Source: a virus. From it: a DNA stretch of 64,000 nucleotides. A program made the translations under genes and the position numbers. Position 1 is the first letter of the stretch. The number at the start of each line of letters is the position of its first letter. Below, piece by piece: positions 11,939 through 35,695 of this stretch. The stretch lies in IMG/VR virus record IMGVR_UViG_3300044535_002275, positions 95,511 through 159,510 of that record; one strand, written 5' to 3'. The notes beneath the pieces were generated by a model. The model made no database searches. It was not told the origin of the DNA and was given only the letters and a program-made list of their open reading frames with translations.

Positions 11939-12271
11939 CTAACGCCAAGTTCTGTGACGTTCAGCAATCCATTCGTGTCCGTCGTATTCTTGTATAATCC
12001 AGTCAACATCAGCCGGTATTTCTATTATTTTAAGTTGAGAAAAATTATCTTCAGCACGTTCTCCCCATTCTTCAACTAATCGAACCAAATAAGGATCGTC
12101 ACGGTCGATGTCTTGATCAGTGAATTCGTCGTCGTCAATGCAGGCCATGCGTTTGTATTCTTCCAAGGCAGATTCGCTGAGACCGTACCCGCCAAAACAA
12201 TCATTGATGACTATTTTGCGAATTCCCATAAGCTGCTGAATTAATCGATCTTTTTCTTCGGAGGTTGCCAT
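11939..12271 (-). CDS. Conserved phage hypothetical protein, 110 aa
   Basis: Starts MATSEEKDRLIQQLMG (an ATG two codons up is possible). It contains IVINDCFGGYGLSESALEEY, a recognisable motif of a small phage family of unknown function. The C-terminus IIQEYDGHEWIAERHRTW ends in Trp-Arg. The start lies inside the last array gene (31-nt overlap), so it is translationally coupled to the array. Confidence 0.7.
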   Translation of the reverse strand: MATSEEKDRLIQQLMGIRKIVINDCFGGYGLSESALEEYKRMACIDDDEFTDQDIDRDDPYLVRLVEEWGERAEDNFSQLKIIEIPADVDWIIQEYDGHEWIAERHRTWR

Positions 12272-12435
12272 TGACATGCAAATAAAAAACTATCGCTTTT
12301 ACGTTTAAAAACAAACGTAGTCGAGTCTGTGCTGAATTTAACACTCCATTCGCCAGATCTCAAATTCTGCCGGCACCAATCCATCATGGAGTCAATTTCA
12401 TTATTGCTGTAGAGATCAAATGATATTTCTGTCAT
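12241..12435 (-). CDS. Array mini-gene 10 (extended C-terminus)
   Basis: 64 aa, the last of ten tandem small genes. It starts MTEISFDLYSNNE in an ATGA overlap and contains MDWCRQNLRSGEWSVKF. It ends SFLFACQWQPPKKKID: the usual LRWS-stop has become CQWQ and translation continues for nine residues into the next gene. SD and start of the downstream gene overlap it. Confidence 0.75.
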   Translation of the reverse strand: MTEISFDLYSNNEIDSMMDWCRQNLRSGEWSVKFSTDSTTFVFKRKSDSFLFACQWQPPKKKID

Positions 12436-12653
12436 GACCATTTTAATAAAAAAGCAATGTATTCAGGTTCTAACATGTATACTTCTCCGGCTTGAGTACT
12501 TGCCATTACATATACATTTATGCCGTACCATTCAGCCATCCAAAGTTTAAATTGTTGACTGCCGACAGCAGCACTGGGGTCAATATGATTTTGCATACGA
12601 CTGACTATGTCGTGCCAAAATTTGGGATACTGTTTGAGATTTACTCGTTTCAT
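12432..12653 (-). CDS. Array mini-gene 9
   Basis: 73 aa, starting MKRVNLKQYPKFWHDIV and ending EPEYIAFLLKWS. It overlaps its neighbours on both sides by ATGA. It shares with the other array members a first strand, a helix with Trp/His, and the hydrophobic final strand with LKW. Function unknown. Confidence 0.8.
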   Translation of the reverse strand: MKRVNLKQYPKFWHDIVSRMQNHIDPSAAVGSQQFKLWMAEWYGINVYVMASTQAGEVYMLEPEYIAFLLKWS

Positions 12654-12904
12654 GACCACCGTAAAATAAACATTAGCAGCAATTCTTGATTGTCAAAACC
12701 CACAGTCATGCCCATTTGAACAGCACCGGGATGGTCAGCACACCACGCATCTAACGCATCGGCATGATCTGTCCAGAAATAGATGTCGGTTAGTACTATC
12801 AAATGCGACACTGCATTGTCGTGCGCTATTGCAGATTCTACCACTATAAATCTTTGTTTTTTCCACTCAGAAAAAATGTCTTCTTGATATTGATTAATTG
12901 TCAT
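12650..12904 (-). CDS. Array mini-gene 8
   Basis: 84 aa, starting MTINQYQEDIFSEWKKQRF, with a mid strand HLIVLTDIYFW and the end DNQELLLMFILRWS. The ATG at 12904 overlaps the upstream gene by 11 nt, and a GTG at 12919 is an alternative start. Its final codons, CGG TGG TCA TGA, supply the next start. Confidence 0.75.
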   Translation of the reverse strand: MTINQYQEDIFSEWKKQRFIVVESAIAHDNAVSHLIVLTDIYFWTDHADALDAWCADHPGAVQMGMTVGFDNQELLLMFILRWS

Positions 12905-13175
12905 CCTGTATATATTCACTGTACTTTAACATAAAAAATGTTTTCTTTGCACTGTTGTACCAGTCCAAGTAAACACAACCTCGATAGTAGCCGAGATTGT
13001 CACGATTTTGAATCCAGTGAGCATGACGTCTAACAGTAAAGCCCAGTTCTCGTTGCATGACCGAGCGCATGATGATGTGGCTGGGAGGATAGTCGCGTAC
13101 CAAGCGTTCGCGAAGACGATTCCATTGTCCTGGGGTCAACTCAGTAGACTCTAACTCCAGCGAAGCTGAAACCAT
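12894..13175 (-). CDS. Array mini-gene 7 (extended C-terminus)
   Basis: 93 aa, the largest array member. It contains QWNRLRERLVRDYPPSH, HWIQNRDNLGYYRGCVYLDW and FFMLKYS, then a seven-residue extension EYIQDDN. It starts inside the previous gene (25-nt overlap) rather than at an ATGA, so this junction has drifted. A TTG further down is an alternative start. Confidence 0.7.
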   Translation of the reverse strand: MVSASLELESTELTPGQWNRLRERLVRDYPPSHIIMRSVMQRELGFTVRRHAHWIQNRDNLGYYRGCVYLDWYNSAKKTFFMLKYSEYIQDDN

Positions 13176-13369
13176 TCTGCGTCCTCGACTGTTTTAAATT
13201 CCCACCGCCAACTGCTGTTGCGGTACGCAATGCCAGTAGAATCTAACCATTGATTTATTTCGTTTTGTAATCGCCTGCCGCGCCACCAATGGTCAACATC
13301 AGCCTGAACCACATTGACCACACAAGGCCATTCGTCTGGTGCCTCTAACACTGTCATGACGAATTTCAT
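13151..13369 (-). CDS. Array mini-gene 6
   Basis: 72 aa, starting MKFVMTVLEAPDEWPCVV, with HWWRGRRLQNEINQWL and the end FKTVEDAEWFQLRWS. ATGA overlap with the upstream member; it stops at TAG, unlike the TGA of most members. The DAxxFxLRW ending is the clearest form of the family motif. Confidence 0.8.
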   Translation of the reverse strand: MKFVMTVLEAPDEWPCVVNVVQADVDHWWRGRRLQNEINQWLDSTGIAYRNSSWRWEFKTVEDAEWFQLRWS

Positions 13370-13563
13370 GCCCACCGCAATTGAAACAACAAGGCCTGTT
13401 CGGCGTCTTCAAATTCTAACCAAGGATAAAATGTTTCCCTACGAACAGGAAACACTCCTTGCGTATATAGCCAGTAACTGAATTCGTCGTTGTTGAGGTT
13501 GTGATTTTCTATCCACCATTTGGCAGCATTGACCCAGTAAGGTTCAATAGGTAATTGTATCAT
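13366..13563 (-). CDS. Array mini-gene 5
   Basis: 65 aa, starting MIQLPIEPYWVNAAKWWIEN and ending WLEFEDAEQALLFQLRWA. ATGA overlaps on both sides. The end codons TTG CGG TGG GCA TGA place GCGGTGG seven bases before the next ATG. Confidence 0.8.
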   Translation of the reverse strand: MIQLPIEPYWVNAAKWWIENHNLNNDEFSYWLYTQGVFPVRRETFYPWLEFEDAEQALLFQLRWA

Positions 13564-13736
13564 AACCACTTCAATGTAAAAAATGCCGCATCGCCGGAAT
13601 TTTTAAACTCCCAGATACTATCCCTAATGCGCAGATTCCATTGATCACGGAACTCACCAAAGTGTTGCTCGCACCATTGAAACATAACGGGCATCTTTTT
13701 ATAATCAACACCGGGCACATAAATTCTGACGATCAC
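13560..13736 (-). CDS. Array mini-gene 4
   Basis: 58 aa, the shortest member. GTG start in a GTGA overlap, beginning MIVRIYVPGVDYKKMPVMF. It continues with QWCEQHFGEFRDQW and ends WEFKNSGDAAFFTLKWL. Strand-helix-strand-strand pattern. Function unknown. Confidence 0.8.
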   Translation of the reverse strand: MIVRIYVPGVDYKKMPVMFQWCEQHFGEFRDQWNLRIRDSIWEFKNSGDAAFFTLKWL

Positions 13737-13948
13737 TTCCACCTCAATTGAAATAACACAACATCCTGATCGTCACCAAATTGATATTCACACATCAGAT
13801 CATTTGTAACAGAAAAGTCTGATACATCCTGTACCTCATAGGTAACAAAACTCTCGCAGTTTTCCTCAGCCCAGGCAGCGGCTGCTCGAAAATATTGTGA
13901 TGCCACTCTTAGCGTCATTCCGGTATCGTTTAGTATGACGGTAATCAT
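13733..13948 (-). CDS. Array mini-gene 3
   Basis: 71 aa from the ATG in ATGA at 13948 (an in-frame ATG at 13966 lies inside the upstream gene). It starts MITVILNDTGMTLRVASQ, has an Ala-rich helix YFRAAAAWAEENCES, and ends FGDDQDVVLFQLRWK. It ends TTGAGGTGGAAGTGA, so Lys replaces Ser but the next GTG start is kept. Confidence 0.8.
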   Translation of the reverse strand: MITVILNDTGMTLRVASQYFRAAAAWAEENCESFVTYEVQDVSDFSVTNDLMCEYQFGDDQDVVLFQLRWK

Positions 13949-14178
13949 GACCACCTCAATATCCACGCAGTTGACTCGGGAGAATCGTTAAACTCTAATT
14001 GAAACCGTGGCATAAACGCCTGATCCAACCCCTCTTCCCATACAAATCGATAAGGTCCAGGGCATATCAGTCTAAACTGTTCCTCTATGCGTTCTCGTGT
14101 AATGTAGTCCCAAGGTTCAAACAGATACTGTTCGATGACTTCTGAGGCCATTTCAATATATTGCGGTGCGTCGCTCAC
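13945..14178 (-). CDS. Array mini-gene 2
   Basis: 77 aa from GTG at 14178 in a GTGA overlap. It has a helix-rich start (PQYIEMASEVIEQYLFE), YRFVWEEGLDQAFMPRFQL and the end NDSPESTAWILRWS. The last codons TTGAGGTGGTCATGA hold a GAGGTG Shine-Dalgarno and the next ATG. Confidence 0.8.
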   Translation of the reverse strand: MSDAPQYIEMASEVIEQYLFEPWDYITRERIEEQFRLICPGPYRFVWEEGLDQAFMPRFQLEFNDSPESTAWILRWS

Positions 14179-14402
14179 GACCACCTCAACGCAAACATAA
14201 TGACAGTGTCTGGATCCACTAGATCAGTATCCAATTCAAATCTGACACGATGCTGCATTGGATTAATCTGCTGATAACTCATGCTCCATCCTTGCCCGCG
14301 TACATGATTACCGCCTGCATGCGGCAAGGCTTCGCCCACATTGTCCGTAAGCCATTGTACAATGGCACGAGCACGTTCAGTGTCCTGAGTATCTACAATC
14401 AT
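14175..14402 (-). CDS. Array mini-gene 1
   Basis: 75 aa, first of the ten. The ATG overlaps the stop of the 118-aa membrane gene (ATGA). It starts MIVDTQDTERARAIVQWL and ends VDPDTVIMFALRWS. The final TTGAGGTGGTCGTGA contains the SD and GTG start for member 2. Confidence 0.8.
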   Translation of the reverse strand: MIVDTQDTERARAIVQWLTDNVGEALPHAGGNHVRGQGWSMSYQQINPMQHRVRFELDTDLVDPDTVIMFALRWS

Positions 14403-14755
14403 CTACGTTCAAACTCTATCACTTGTTCCCAGTCAGGTCCCATGATCATTTGGGTCTTGTTGATCACAAAAATATGTTGAGGAAAACGCTGTTCTAGCAC
14501 AGCAACAATTTCGTTGTGATCACGTCCCTGGGCCAAAAAGGTACCGTCGTCGTTGTCAAACCAATATATGATGTCGTTGATAACTTCTTGTTTGACCACA
14601 TGCACACGTTGTTCCAGTTGTGCAATCTCCTGTTGTTCTTGATCGTGTTGATCCTGCAGCGAGGGCAAAATCAACCAGCGCAGTACCATGCGTCCCAAAA
14701 CAACCCCCACAGCAAACCAGCCAATGGTACTTAAAATGCTTACTAAGATATCCAT
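14399..14755 (-). CDS. Membrane-anchored conserved phage protein, 118 aa
   Basis: One N-terminal membrane segment (residues about 5-32), a Gln/Glu-rich coiled coil (QDQHDQEQQEIAQLEQRV), and a C-terminal domain IIYWFDNDDGTFLAQGRDHNEI..LEQRFPQHIFVI that recurs in marine and freshwater myoviruses. Function unknown. It heads the mini-gene array with an ATGA overlap. Confidence 0.75.
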   Translation of the reverse strand: MDILVSILSTIGWFAVGVVLGRMVLRWLILPSLQDQHDQEQQEIAQLEQRVHVVKQEVINDIIYWFDNDDGTFLAQGRDHNEIVAVLEQRFPQHIFVINKTQMIMGPDWEQVIEFERR

Positions 14756-14763
14756 GCTGTTCC

Positions 14764-15000
14764 TTACAGGGATTGAATATGATCAATAATTAATTGCGAC
14801 TCTGACATGTCAACAAGCCCGTTATCGATGTCGGTATCGAATACTTCGAACATGACCATGCGGATCATGGCATGAGCCATAGGCTTGATGCTAGCAGGTA
14901 AAGATTCGAACCACTTGATTAGTTGTTCGGACGTGTTGCATGACCAAATTGCATCACATAATTCTTGTTGTAGAGGCGAAAGATTAGGAATTGATATCAT
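14764..15000 (-). CDS. Conserved phage hypothetical protein, 78 aa
   Basis: All-helical. It contains LCDAIWSCNTSEQLIKWFESLP and HAMIRMVMFEVFD, matching a widespread small phage family (IWS.dt.ee..f..LP). ATGA overlap with the upstream 52-aa gene. No known function. Confidence 0.75.
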   Translation of the reverse strand: MISIPNLSPLQQELCDAIWSCNTSEQLIKWFESLPASIKPMAHAMIRMVMFEVFDTDIDNGLVDMSESQLIIDHIQSL

Positions 15001-15175: not shown

Positions 15176-15204
15176 ATTATACTACTAAACTTGTTGCCAG
15201 TCAA
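15176..15204 (-). promoter_or_regulatory. sigma70-type promoter of the mini-gene array operon
   Basis: TTGACT (15204-15199), 17-nt spacer, TATAAT (15181-15176), 21 nt from the first CDS. No terminator is visible before 11890, so one transcript could cover all genes to about 11939. Confidence 0.75.
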
Positions 15205-21011: not shown

Positions 21012-21866
21012 TCAAGTGCCCCACTCGTTCTTAAACAAAGGAACTTGCAGTCTATCACTGTAGCGCAAGCCATTTTTCATAGCAAACTCTGCTACACGGC
21101 GATTGTTGAGTACGTACACACTTTCCACTCCACCTACCGGCATCAAGTAGCAAGGTCCACTAAATCCAGCAGCACGATATACAGACAATGTTTCCAGTGC
21201 TTCAGCAGCATCCGCTTCTGTGGCAATCACAAACTTGAGGTAAGTGTAACCGATTTCCTGATACTCGCACACAACCTTGGGAAGAATAGCTTCCGACCGT
21301 TCTTCGCCTGAGCAGCTAAGTTTAGCACTGACACTGAAAGTTAACTTGTTGTAATCTCGACCAAACCGTGTAAATTCTGTAAACAAATAGTCTTTGAATT
21401 CTGTGGAGAGTTGTTGAGTGCCGTTTGTTTCGAATGTAATCTCTTTAAGATCTGCCATCTTGGGATGATTCAACAGATCAGGATAAGCACGTTGCCAGCC
21501 CAACAGAGGTTCACCGCCTGTAATGACCAAATGTTCATCCTGCCATTTGTTAAACGGCAGTATTTCTGTAATACGATCAGCAATGGCATCAGTTGTCAAC
21601 ATAGGACTAAGATGCTTAAACTCTGGAGCCCACGAGGCGTACGAATCACATCCAGTTGATACCAACGGTAGTTCCTCGTAGCTTTTAAAATTTATTGCTT
21701 GTTCAGCCACGCGATGACGTTCTTGTGTTTTTTCTCCCAACGGCATACCAAAACCGTCGCAAGTGAAGTTACAACCGAATGTTCTAAGGAACACACTGGG
21801 GACACCCATGAAACGACCTTCGCCCTGGATGGAATAAAATAGTTCTGCGATTTTAATTTTGCTCAT
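21012..21866 (-). CDS. queE: 7-carboxy-7-deazaguanine synthase (QueE), phage variant
   Basis: Radical SAM enzyme making CDG from 6-carboxytetrahydropterin. The start IAELFYSIQGEGRFMGV and FLRTFGCNFTCDGFGMP are QueE hallmarks. As in other phage QueE, the cluster-binding cysteines are split: the third Cys lies about 50 residues on, in VSTGCDSYASW. HLVITGGEPLL is the SAM motif. 284 aa, a bit longer than bacterial QueE. It works with QueD (27374) and FolE (27984). Its own promoter is not visible; the sigma70 promoter at 21872-21900 lies 6 nt upstream. Confidence 0.9.
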   Translation of the reverse strand: MSKIKIAELFYSIQGEGRFMGVPSVFLRTFGCNFTCDGFGMPLGEKTQERHRVAEQAINFKSYEELPLVSTGCDSYASWAPEFKHLSPMLTTDAIADRITEILPFNKWQDEHLVITGGEPLLGWQRAYPDLLNHPKMADLKEITFETNGTQQLSTEFKDYLFTEFTRFGRDYNKLTFSVSAKLSCSGEERSEAILPKVVCEYQEIGYTYLKFVIATEADAAEALETLSVYRAAGFSGPCYLMPVGGVESVYVLNNRRVAEFAMKNGLRYSDRLQVPLFKNEWGT

Positions 21867-27373: not shown

Positions 27374-27901
27374 TTACCCTTCGTATGTGGCAGAATTTCC
27401 AGCATGTTCAAAAACTTCTACGCTCTTGATACGCACTGATGGATTTAATGGATACCGATGATTTCCATTCTTTAGCAACCAATCCATTTTTTCGTAGCAC
27501 ATTTTGGCAAACAATTCGCAGCCCACTCCTTCTACAATGCGTAGATCACACACACCGCTGCGGCGATATGGTTCAGTTTGCACTCTATTCGGATTTCCGT
27601 CATGCTCTGGATTACTACTCCATCCGGCCATTTCTTTAAATCTATCTAGTAGAGGATCATCGTGTGCAATCACAGTAGTATGATCAAACATATTGTCGGC
27701 CCATGCTTTGAAGTCTTTTAAACCTCCAAAATCCATGCCCCAGTTTTTTTCGTCAAGAGTATCACATTCAAATACCAATTTAATACCAATCGAGTAACCG
27801 TGGAGCAGCGAGCAATGACTGTGTGTGGCACGCCACTGTCTAAAACAGCATGACAGACCTCTATCGTTGCCGTATGTTTTTGTTGAAAGATATTTTGCCA
27901 T
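27374..27901 (-). CDS. queD: 6-carboxy-5,6,7,8-tetrahydropterin synthase (QueD)
   Basis: 175 aa T-fold enzyme converting the FolE product to 6-carboxytetrahydropterin for QueE. The motif CCFRQWRATHSHCSLLHGYS supplies the catalytic Cys and the two Zn-binding His. FDHTTVIAHDDPLL has the second His region. GIKLVFECDTLDEKNWG and MDFGGLKDFK are typical. Longer than bacterial QueD, as in phage forms. Confidence 0.88.
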   Translation of the reverse strand: MAKYLSTKTYGNDRGLSCCFRQWRATHSHCSLLHGYSIGIKLVFECDTLDEKNWGMDFGGLKDFKAWADNMFDHTTVIAHDDPLLDRFKEMAGWSSNPEHDGNPNRVQTEPYRRSGVCDLRIVEGVGCELFAKMCYEKMDWLLKNGNHRYPLNPSVRIKSVEVFEHAGNSATYEG

Positions 27902-27983: not shown

Positions 27984-28679
27984 TTATCTAGGCGCAAAGT
28001 CTTGCTGTAATTTAATATTATCAAAAAACTCTTTTTTGACCCCAGGATCGGTACCAAACACACCTTTAAGCACTGTGGTCTGTGTCAAACTTGAGTGTGC
28101 CATAATACCGCGATTCTCGCAGCAACCGTGTGTAGCTTGAATGTAAACGCCGACATTCTCGCTATCAGTGGCTCGCATTATTTCTCTTGCAATATCGTTG
28201 CAGAGTTCTTCTTGCAAAGTACCACGGCGAGCACACCACTGAGCAATCCTAGTATACTTAGATAGCCCGATAAGTTTATTTGCGGCAATAATTCCAATGT
28301 AGGCAACACCGCTAACAGGCTGATGATGGTGACTACACATACTGCGCAACTCACTGCGCACAACCAACATACCTTCATATCTATCCTCGCTATCATTGGG
28401 AAACGCTGTGGCATCAGGAGCAGGTTCATATCGACCAGACATGATTTCGTACACATACATCTTGGCCAATCTACGTGCTGTGCCTTGACTGTTGGGATCT
28501 GTGACTGTATCAATGACCAGGCTTTGTAGCACATCTTCGAACTTGAGTGTGAGTTCGTCTACTAGTTGAGTTTTTTCTTCTTTTGTGATGTGTGCTGAAA
28601 TGTTGTCTCCCGCCCAGTATCTGACCTTACCTGCTTCTAAGCGTTGGCGAATCACTTGTGATAAATGTTTTTCTTGCAT
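27984..28679 (-). CDS. folE: GTP cyclohydrolase I (FolE)
   Basis: About 231 aa from the ATG at 28679 with GGAG upstream. It makes dihydroneopterin triphosphate from GTP. Zn and catalytic motifs: SMCSHHHQPVSGVAYIGII, NKLIGLSKYTRI, and QATHGCCENRGIMAHSSL with the second Cys. First step of the 7-deazaguanine path completed by QueD and QueE. The promoter at 28725-28753 drives it. Confidence 0.93.
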   Translation of the reverse strand: MQEKHLSQVIRQRLEAGKVRYWAGDNISAHITKEEKTQLVDELTLKFEDVLQSLVIDTVTDPNSQGTARRLAKMYVYEIMSGRYEPAPDATAFPNDSEDRYEGMLVVRSELRSMCSHHHQPVSGVAYIGIIAANKLIGLSKYTRIAQWCARRGTLQEELCNDIAREIMRATDSENVGVYIQATHGCCENRGIMAHSSLTQTTVLKGVFGTDPGVKKEFFDNIKLQQDFAPR

Positions 28680-28724
28680 TGTATTTCTCCGAGTTATAGG
28701 GTCGAGGATGACCAATCATACTGT

Positions 28725-33925: not shown

Positions 33926-35626
33926 TTAATCGTTGACAGTGTTTTCTAATTGGTCTAGTAATTCTTCATCGAACTCAGCGGTTTCGATTTCTTCGTCTTC
34001 TGTATCAAATAAGTTATTGAACATGACCCGGGAATTTACAGCTCTGGGTCCAGTAAAACCTCTAGTTCCAATTACTCTTTCCCATACTTTAGCATGATCT
34101 TTAATAATTTGCAAGCTGGTCTGGCGATCTTTAGCAGAAAAAACCTTATCAATAATTCGTACAATATCTAGATCCGAATCAAGCGGATGTACCATCATGT
34201 CCGGACATTGCCCTGAATCAAAAACACGATTTGCACGTTGTACAGCTTCGATATGCATCCAAACATTATGTCCCATCAGTAGTGCATAGCTAAAGCTATC
34301 CCAAGAAGTTTTTCCTTCTTTTCCTACCTTATTCAGCATGCCAGGAGCATAGTGACAAATGTCTGAAATTTTCAATCGGCTGCTAATCGGACTGTCTTCA
34401 AATCCGGGATGTATAACTGTATTAGCTTTGCTGTTTGCTTTATCTTGTCTAACAACATCACCAAACAAACGATTGTCAGTGGCGTACTTTTTGTTATCAG
34501 CTGTGGGACTCATTTGATAACTCCACTTTGATCGATTCTCTGTAGTGATGTTATGATACAATTGTCCGTTGGCTGTGGCCAAGAATGGACTGGCACAATC
34601 AAAGCTAATAGTAAATGTAGGATTGTGATAACGCCTAACGCTGCGTTGAATAGCAGTCAATAGCACAGCCCATTCAAGTTTACTTGTGCCCAAGAAATGC
34701 ATCCAATCCTGTACACCGGACTCTAATAATCCATCATGTATTAAATGTACCAAGCGTTTTAATATCAATTCAACATCGCACATGTTCTGACCTCCCATGC
34801 CCCAGCCGTTGAAGTGTTTTTCGTATTTTTTCGGATCGCAATAATCCTTCATTGTTTGATACCAACGCTCTGCTTCGTCGTGATCACCGCCCTGCAATAC
34901 ATTTAAAATTTTAGTATCGCCATATCTGTTGGCAATCCAATATTCGTTGTTGTATTTGGTTGCATTGACAGCATCGTCGTAGCTGGTAATACCAGAAGCT
35001 GCAGATGCTTTGGGATCACGGAAAGTCCAAGTTGGAATATCCATTGTCATGCCATACGTAGCTATGCCCATTTGCCATTTGAGCACAGTCTCTCTCATTT
35101 TTTTTGCAGCATCTAATTTGGCTTGATATTCTTTGACATGATCGATTTTAATAAATTTTGGCTTGCCATTCTTGTCAAATTTTTGATTGCCAGCATCGTC
35201 TAGTAACGGTTTTAATTCAATACCCTTGGCCACAGCTTCTGCCATTAGTGCAGCAACTTCAGGACTGCTGGGATCCTTCCATTCTCCGGGCCATACTCCT
35301 TTGGCAATCTGGAACCCTCCTGAGTCAGCTAACATAATAGTATTGGGATCTCTATTACGAATCATATCCTCGCGAGGATCCGGCTTTGCTAAATCCAAGT
35401 TAGCATGCCCTGCTGAGTACAGACTCCAACGATATGGGAATAGTCCTTCTTGGGAATTCAACCAGTTAAGTTGCTCCATGTTAGGAATTCCAGCAGGCAT
35501 ACGAGACTGTTCTACATACTCACTGGTTCGTTGACGTCCTACATAATTGGCATAAAAACTACTGAGTGCCGGTAAGAAAATAGCATAGTCTTGTTGCTTG
35601 TCTGTTAAGTTATCTTGTTCGTTCAT
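33926..35626 (-). CDS. dpdA: DpdA-like 7-deazaguanine DNA transglycosylase (TGT family)
   Basis: 566 aa from the ATG at 35626 with AAGGAAA before it. Related to tRNA-guanine transglycosylase: IMLADSGGFQIAKG has the catalytic-site Asp and DSGGFQ; KILNVLQGGD matches the VQGG loop; GWGMGGQ and TISFDCASPF follow. DpdA inserts 7-deazaguanine bases into DNA in phages. The QueE, QueD and FolE genes of this window would supply the base. No C-terminal Zn cluster seen, as in DpdA forms. Confidence 0.85.
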   Translation of the reverse strand: MNEQDNLTDKQQDYAIFLPALSSFYANYVGRQRTSEYVEQSRMPAGIPNMEQLNWLNSQEGLFPYRWSLYSAGHANLDLAKPDPREDMIRNRDPNTIMLADSGGFQIAKGVWPGEWKDPSSPEVAALMAEAVAKGIELKPLLDDAGNQKFDKNGKPKFIKIDHVKEYQAKLDAAKKMRETVLKWQMGIATYGMTMDIPTWTFRDPKASAASGITSYDDAVNATKYNNEYWIANRYGDTKILNVLQGGDHDEAERWYQTMKDYCDPKKYEKHFNGWGMGGQNMCDVELILKRLVHLIHDGLLESGVQDWMHFLGTSKLEWAVLLTAIQRSVRRYHNPTFTISFDCASPFLATANGQLYHNITTENRSKWSYQMSPTADNKKYATDNRLFGDVVRQDKANSKANTVIHPGFEDSPISSRLKISDICHYAPGMLNKVGKEGKTSWDSFSYALLMGHNVWMHIEAVQRANRVFDSGQCPDMMVHPLDSDLDIVRIIDKVFSAKDRQTSLQIIKDHAKVWERVIGTRGFTGPRAVNSRVMFNNLFDTEDEEIETAEFDEELLDQLENTVND

Positions 35627-35695
35627 TCGGTTTCCTTTTCCTGCGGGCACAATTTCTTTATAATTTCCAACTGTTCCTAAACTGCTCCAGAGATT

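What the first reader, a model, noticed from the sequence alone, without database searches (positions are those of the whole stretch)
12241..14402. Tandem array of ten mini-genes whose C-terminal LRWS codons also form the next gene's ribosome site and start
Ten consecutive ORFs of 58-93 aa. Eight end in a (F/I/L)xL(R/K)W + one residue motif; the other two (12241, 12894) carry variants with extensions. Seven of nine internal junctions are 4-nt ATGA/GTGA overlaps, and several read TTG AGG TGG TCA TGA, where GAGGTG can act as Shine-Dalgarno and ATG lies inside TCATGA. The coding motif and the translation signal are therefore the same bases. The proteins share only this ending and a strand-helix-strand outline. 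This suggests repeated duplication with diversification under the constraint of coupled translation. I know of no described system of this form; function is open (decoys, anti-defence, or toxin/antitoxin-like).
Basis: partly seen in the sequence, partly recalled or inferred. Interest (0 to 1): 0.85.

Follow-up and report, generated by a model that had tools for sequence, protein, structure and literature searches.

The report
Shuffled phage mini-gene array, dual-use junctions
Large environmental phages carry rows of up to 20 tiny related genes in which the last few letters of each gene also serve as the "start reading here" signal of the next gene and as the seam where whole genes are swapped in and out, an arrangement that appears undescribed and probably supplies a fast-changing set of small accessory proteins made early in infection.

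Summary
Ten tandem ORFs (58-93 aa) lie on the minus strand at 12241-14402; eight end in (F/W)xL(R/K)W plus one residue, and seven of nine junctions are 4-nt overlaps. The proteins share more than an ending. All ten match one 59-column profile, and AlphaFold2 gives a confident beta-alpha-beta-beta-alpha domain whose C-terminal helix carries the motif. The family is absent from Pfam, PHROGs, NCBIfam and PDB. It recurs in at least 112 fetched viral loci, in arrays of up to 20 genes, and in the isolates Sinorhizobium phage Phosso (35 copies) and Agrobacterium phage Atu_ph07 (6). Dual use of the junction is supported statistically: in an unbiased set the motif Arg is AGG in 17/22 coupled genes against 11/154 internal Arg (p=2e-12). 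The bias weakens where no gene follows, although the amino-acid motif stays. Close relatives differ by whole cassettes cut at the junction, so growth is mostly by cassette exchange, not recent duplication. Orthologs are under purifying selection (omega about 0.24). Near-consensus sigma-70 promoters are enriched tenfold upstream. Best reading: a modular array of early, host-interacting accessory proteins; architecture well supported, targets inferred.

The parts
14175..14402 (-). array gene 1 (75 aa, ends FALRWS); tail TTTGCGTTGAGGTGGTCGTGA carries the SD-like site and GTG start of gene 2
   Evidence: family profile E 1e-8
13945..14178 (-). array gene 2 (77 aa from GTG 14178, ends WILRWS); GTGA overlap upstream; tail TTGAGGTGGTCATGA
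   Evidence: family profile E 2e-4; hhalign 75% probability on the last 21 columns; ortholog in L002
13733..13948 (-). array gene 3 (71 aa, ends FQLRWK); tail TTGAGGTGGAAGTGA
   Evidence: family profile E 4e-10
13560..13736 (-). array gene 4 (58 aa, GTG start, ends FTLKWL); AlphaFold2 model beta-alpha-beta-beta-alpha
   Evidence: family profile E 5.5e-13
13366..13563 (-). array gene 5 (65 aa, ends FQLRWA); orthologs at 72-75% identity in four IMG/VR contigs
   Evidence: family profile E 6e-9
13151..13369 (-). array gene 6 (72 aa, ends FQLRWS); motif coded CTT CGC TGG AGT, no SD codons, no 4-nt overlap with the next gene
   Evidence: family profile E 3e-11
12894..13175 (-). array gene 7 (93 aa, variant motif FFMLKYS plus extension); same fold topology with an extra helix
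   Evidence: family profile E 2e-5
12650..12904 (-). array gene 8 (84 aa, ends FILRWS); 11-nt overlap with gene 7; tail TTACGGTGGTCATGA
   Evidence: family profile E 2e-10
12432..12653 (-). array gene 9 (73 aa, ends FLLKWS)
   Evidence: family profile E 4e-6; similar genes in L002 and L004
12241..12435 (-). array gene 10 (64 aa; LFACQW plus lysine-rich extension); last member
   Evidence: family profile E 3e-9
15176..15204 (-). near-consensus sigma-70 promoter (TTGACT-17-TATAAT, 11/12) upstream of the unit 14764-15000, 14399-14755 and the array
   Evidence: expected 0.8 such sites per strand of the window by shuffling
14399..14755 (-). 118-aa ORF directly upstream, overlapping gene 1 by 4 nt; no match to a named family that explains it

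Best explanation
This is a modular array of small accessory phage genes of one divergent, so far unnamed protein family (a single beta-alpha-beta-beta-alpha domain, rich in Trp). Translation: ribosomes finishing one gene reinitiate on the next. The codons for the conserved C-terminal helix end (F-x-L-R-W-S, written TTG AGG TGG TCA TGA) contain a Shine-Dalgarno-like GAGGTG and the overlapping ATG. Gene exchange: because the junctions resemble each other, they are also short homologies at which whole genes can be lost, gained or reordered, with frame, C-terminus and ribosome site kept. A phage can therefore change its set of proteins gene by gene. Role (inferred): proteins made early from host-type promoters, each using the variable surface of a shared scaffold to bind a different host target (host takeover or counter-defence). 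Shown: homology, arrays in many phages, codon bias, cassette differences at junctions, purifying selection, promoter enrichment. Predicted: the fold. Inferred: coupled translation itself, early expression, targets.
For: One family: 580/636 array proteins connect by BLASTP at E<1e-4; all ten window proteins match the profile; AF2 pLDDT 91.8 and 78.8 give the same topology; BFVD matches at probability about 1.0 are nearly all uncharacterised uncultured-phage proteins. Recurrence. Dual signal: AGG 17/22 vs 11/154 internal (p=2e-12) and TTG 27/43 vs 38/151 (p=8e-6) in protein-fetched loci only; in the large set AGG 244/346 and TTG 300/442 with a coupled ATG, 4/12 and 5/23 without; GAGGT precedes 220 of 350 4-nt-overlap starts. 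Cassette exchange: L074/L078 differ by two genes between near-identical junction copies, L088/L123 and L004/L005 by one; 46 indel or reorder differences against 72 conserved adjacencies. Real proteins: omega median 0.24, none above 1, 182 pairs. Early-type context: promoters of at least 11/12, 29 seen vs 2.8 expected upstream of 78 arrays; array downstream of 5'-3' exonuclease and nucleotide-metabolism genes. Reinitiation at ATGA overlaps with intragenic SD is experimentally known (PMC6728339).
Against: No expression, binding or phenotype data. Codon identity could be kept by recombination between junctions as well as by ribosome binding; the two cannot be separated fully. 78 of 350 4-nt-overlap junctions lack an obvious SD core. 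In Phosso most motif codons are not SD-like, so dual use is a property of some lineages. hhalign support for gene 7 against the family is weak (4.5% probability, last 21 columns only). Several members have C-terminal extensions. No member matches a known counter-defence or takeover protein. The rearrangement count includes several comparisons of related contigs, so the 46 events are not all independent.
Confidence: 0.6

Rival explanations
1. The array encodes subunits of one heteromeric assembly (for example a virion decoration). Coupled translation sets their ratio.
For: [quoted passage not shown] coli and H. volcanii (PMC10666635). All members share a scaffold with a conserved hydrophobic core.
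Against: Number and identity of members differ between close relatives by whole genes, while neighbours are 91-100% identical. Phosso has 35 and Atu_ph07 6 scattered copies. The arrays lie downstream of host-type promoters.
Confidence: 0.15
2. An immunity or antitoxin bank: each protein neutralises a different toxin (host abortive-infection or toxin-antitoxin toxins, or toxins of competing phages), as in bacterial polyimmunity loci.
For: Same organisation as homogeneous polyimmunity loci: tandem, distantly related paralogs whose number varies between strains, without linked toxins (PMC3482391). Small single-domain proteins with a variable surface.
Against: No similarity to known immunity or defence families. 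Found in phages, not in bacterial genomes.
Confidence: 0.2
3. The shared ending is only a by-product of selection for a Shine-Dalgarno site upstream of overlapping starts; the proteins are otherwise unrelated.
For: Motif codons resemble an SD and sit at the right distance.
Against: The motif is kept where no gene follows, with other codons, at 13151 in the window, and in Phosso as FKLRW or FKLTW. Profile and structure extend over the whole domain.
Confidence: 0.02
4. Decoy or non-functional ORFs kept only as spacers or translation-coupling leaders.
For: Very divergent proteins without database matches.
Against: dN/dS median 0.24 over 182 ortholog pairs, none above 1; high-confidence folded domain.
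Confidence: 0.03

Closest known systems
Translational coupling by termination-reinitiation at overlapping genes (Huber et al. 2019, PMC6728339; 2023, PMC10666635)
   Same: 4-nt ATGA/GTGA overlaps with an intragenic SD in the 3' end of the upstream gene
   Different: The cases read about are gene pairs with unrelated 3' ends. Here one conserved protein motif encodes the signal, repeated along arrays of up to 20 homologous genes.
Polyimmunity loci (Zhang et al. 2012, PMC3482391)
   Same: Tandem arrays of distantly related paralogs of one small fold, number and type varying between close relatives, no linked toxin
   Different: Those are bacterial, of other folds, with no such coding/translation/recombination junction described in the passages read; neutralising function is not shown here.
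Phage T4 Arn family and early gene clusters (from general knowledge, not tested by a dedicated search)
   Same: Tandem small paralogous early proteins in a T4-related phage, some of them counter-defence
   Different: T4 has no match to this profile; members here are not uniformly acidic (pI quartiles 5.1 and 8.5).
Bacillus phage G expansion of about 35 zinc-ribbon proteins (Iyer et al. 2021, PMC7824862)
   Same: Lineage-specific expansion of a small protein family in a jumbo phage
   Different: Different fold; no coupled tandem organisation described in the passage read.

Membership tests
Termination-reinitiation coupled gene array | Stop and start codons overlap by 4 or 1 nt | tested here: met
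   7 of 9 window junctions; 350 at -4 and 41 at -1 among 636 distinct members
Termination-reinitiation coupled gene array | SD-like site inside the upstream gene before the downstream start | tested here: met
   GAGGT before 220 of 350 4-nt-overlap starts; codon bias
Termination-reinitiation coupled gene array | Downstream translation depends on upstream translation | not testable with these tools
   needs reporter assay or ribosome profiling
Polyimmunity locus | Tandem distantly related paralogs of one fold, variable between strains | tested here: met
Polyimmunity locus | Members belong to a known immunity family (SUKH, Imm families) | tested here: not met
   no Pfam, NCBIfam or PADLOC match
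Polyimmunity locus | Members neutralise toxins | not testable with these tools
   needs expression of members against toxins
T4 Arn-type DNA-mimic family | Strongly acidic DNA-mimic proteins | tested here: not met
   net charge median -1, 5-95% range -7 to +6
Ferredoxin-like (beta-alpha-beta-beta-alpha-beta) fold, e.g. HMA domain | Fourth strand after helix 2 and significant structural match | tested here: not met
   chain ends in helix 2; best PDB E-value 0.46

The most novel reading that the evidence does not exclude
A self-organising phage gene-cassette system: one repeated junction sequence is at once the conserved C-terminus of every protein, the ribosome-binding and start site of the next, and the homologous seam for recombination. 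Phages thereby gain, lose and reorder small effector genes without a dedicated recombinase while keeping every gene in frame and translated.
Probability: 0.45. Interest if true: 0.85.

Novelty: new variant of a known kind. Interest (0 to 1): 0.73.

Why it matters
It defines a phage-specific protein family, missing from the libraries searched here, with up to 35 copies per genome. It offers a concrete mechanism by which phages could diversify small accessory proteins: a junction with three simultaneous roles. If the members are counter-defence or takeover proteins, the arrays are a ready catalogue of hundreds of candidates, and isolate Phosso on Sinorhizobium meliloti makes them testable.

Tried and rejected
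Family libraries (Pfam, PHROGs, NCBIfam, PADLOC) and PDB sequence and fold searches gave nothing significant for the family. tblastn of members against 50,697 phage records found only a weak Phosso hit. The profile gave no match in T4, S-PM2, P-SSM2, phiM9, phiM12, HTVC008M and KVP40, nor in Asteriusvirus PBECO4, Eneladusvirus BF and Vibrio phage 2.275.O. Scan of bacterial genomes with the junction pattern: 61 hits, about the number I expect by chance for that pattern length (own estimate, about 60), of which one (L194) is a real array in a MAG contig. Searching with the whole alignment as query failed for lack of a conserved block; a scan with gene 4 alone found no relative. T4-type late promoter TATAAATA was not enriched and says nothing. 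Rejected: motif by codon bias or SD alone, decoy ORFs, recent local duplication, Arn-like acidic mimics as a class. The gene-level -4 overlap by itself is ordinary: 27 of 156 other same-strand neighbours in this genome have it (crude gene calls).

Full report
What is there. On the minus strand of window 12241-14402 lie ten consecutive small genes. The string TTGAGGTGGTCATGA itself occurs once and its core TTGAGGTGG three times. The window is the last 64 kb of a 159,510-base IMG/VR contig. Its DNA polymerase is nearest (50% identity) to that of the jumbo phage Sinorhizobium phage Phosso, then Agrobacterium phage Atu_ph07.

It is not chance. No other ORF of at least 50 aa in the window has the ending. 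A pattern for the junction hits at least 120 IMG/VR contigs, where the scan stopped; the letter-reversed control hits six, each once. Of 124 viral loci fetched through the protein or the junction, 112 contain at least one and 98 at least three members by profile. Regex-defined arrays run to 20 genes.

One protein family. Among 636 distinct array proteins, 580 join one BLASTP component. A 59-column profile (consensus W.Ei..WC.enFG.rW....F.F.dEkDatwFlLRWS) matches all ten window proteins. Conserved positions are mainly hydrophobic or aromatic (W, W, F, F, L, W) plus the R/K; most other columns are nearly free. AlphaFold2 on gene 4 with 95 relatives gives beta-alpha-beta-beta-alpha, pLDDT 91.8, with the motif inside the last helix. 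The most deviant testable member, gene 7, gives the same order with one extra helix, pLDDT 78.8, although profile-profile support for it is weak. Foldseek finds many uncharacterised proteins of uncultured phages and nothing significant in PDB. No library names the family.

The dual signal. In loci fetched by protein similarity only, so not selected for the junction, the motif Arg is AGG in 17 of 22 coupled genes, against 11 of 154 Arg elsewhere in the same genes; Leu is TTG in 27 of 43 against 38 of 151. In the larger set, after removing one pattern-matching member per contig, the bias is present when an ATG-started ORF is coupled (AGG 244/346, TTG 300/442) and much weaker when none follows (4/12, 5/23). 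Members without a coupled neighbour keep the amino acids, as does window gene 6 with CTT CGC TGG, and in Phosso the ending is FKLRW or FKLTW with mostly ordinary codons. So the protein motif appears to be selected for itself, with the ribosome site laid over it. Reinitiation helped by such intragenic SD sites is experimentally established elsewhere (PMC6728339); here it is inferred.

How arrays change. Within arrays almost no pair is recently duplicated (31 of 2634 detectable, two above 50% identity). Between related contigs, neighbours that are 91-100% identical flank whole-gene differences. In L074 against L078 two genes are missing between near-identical copies of TTTATATTGAGGTGGTCATGAACA; L088 against L123 and L004 against L005 differ by one gene with breakpoints in the junction. 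In all, 46 indel or reorder differences were seen against 72 conserved adjacencies, not all independent. Orthologs show omega 0.24 (median; none above 1). The junction therefore behaves as a recombination seam that preserves frame, C-terminus and start signal. This third role follows from the comparisons but rests on three alignments read base by base.

Context and role. Near-consensus sigma-70 promoters are ten times more frequent upstream of arrays than in shuffles (29 vs 2.8 for 78 arrays). In the window one stands at 15204-15176 ahead of the unit. Upstream lie nucleotide-metabolism and 5'-3' exonuclease genes. Host-type promoters, small size, free surface, rapid turnover and purifying selection together suit early host-interaction or counter-defence proteins. 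No target is known and none was testable. Coupled translation could also serve a heteromeric assembly (PMC10666635), but variable gene content argues against it. The closest organisational parallel is the polyimmunity locus of bacteria (PMC3482391).

Distribution. Isolates: Phosso 35 members and Atu_ph07 six, often between tRNA genes in Phosso. None was found in ten other well-known large phages tested. Bacterial genomes gave one array, in a 6.4-kb contig of a Bacteroidetes MAG, probably a phage contig. The papers on Atu_ph07 and a related Sinorhizobium jumbo phage, and a survey of jumbo phages, do not mention it in the passages searched.

Verdict. A real, recurrent and apparently undescribed gene array; architecture well supported, function inferred.

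Noticed in passing
window 21012-21866, 27374-27901, 27984-28715, 33926-35650: QueE-like, QueD-like and GTP cyclohydrolase I genes point to a 7-deazaguanine pathway (DNA or tRNA modification). The 574-aa ORF at 33926 reads like a transglycosylase by eye, but no library matched it.
   Followed up: partly
window 11912-11884 (-), also 1359 and 711 (-): Perfect 12/12 sigma-70 promoters; strong promoters of the genome concentrate on the minus strand of contig positions 57-117 kb, the accessory and tRNA region.
   Followed up: partly
G000:C1 about 71634 (-), locus L129: A single 95-aa ORF outside the array ends SDPRDATLFGLKYSL, probably a lone family member; another at 67700 ends FFKLKFK.
   Followed up: no
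L194 (DLXM01000070.1): A 6.4-kb contig binned as Bacteroidetes bacterium UBA11400 carries a 16-gene array; probably a misbinned phage contig.
   Followed up: no
L131, L144, L145 (Phosso PV764938.1): Phosso carries 35 divergent copies in several clusters between tRNA genes, with other small ORFs of similar size that may be further relatives.
   Followed up: partly
window junctions reading AGGTGGTCATGA: The GTG inside AGGTGG is in frame with the ATG (GTG GTC ATG, peptide MVM), so automatic annotation will often call starts two codons early.
   Followed up: no
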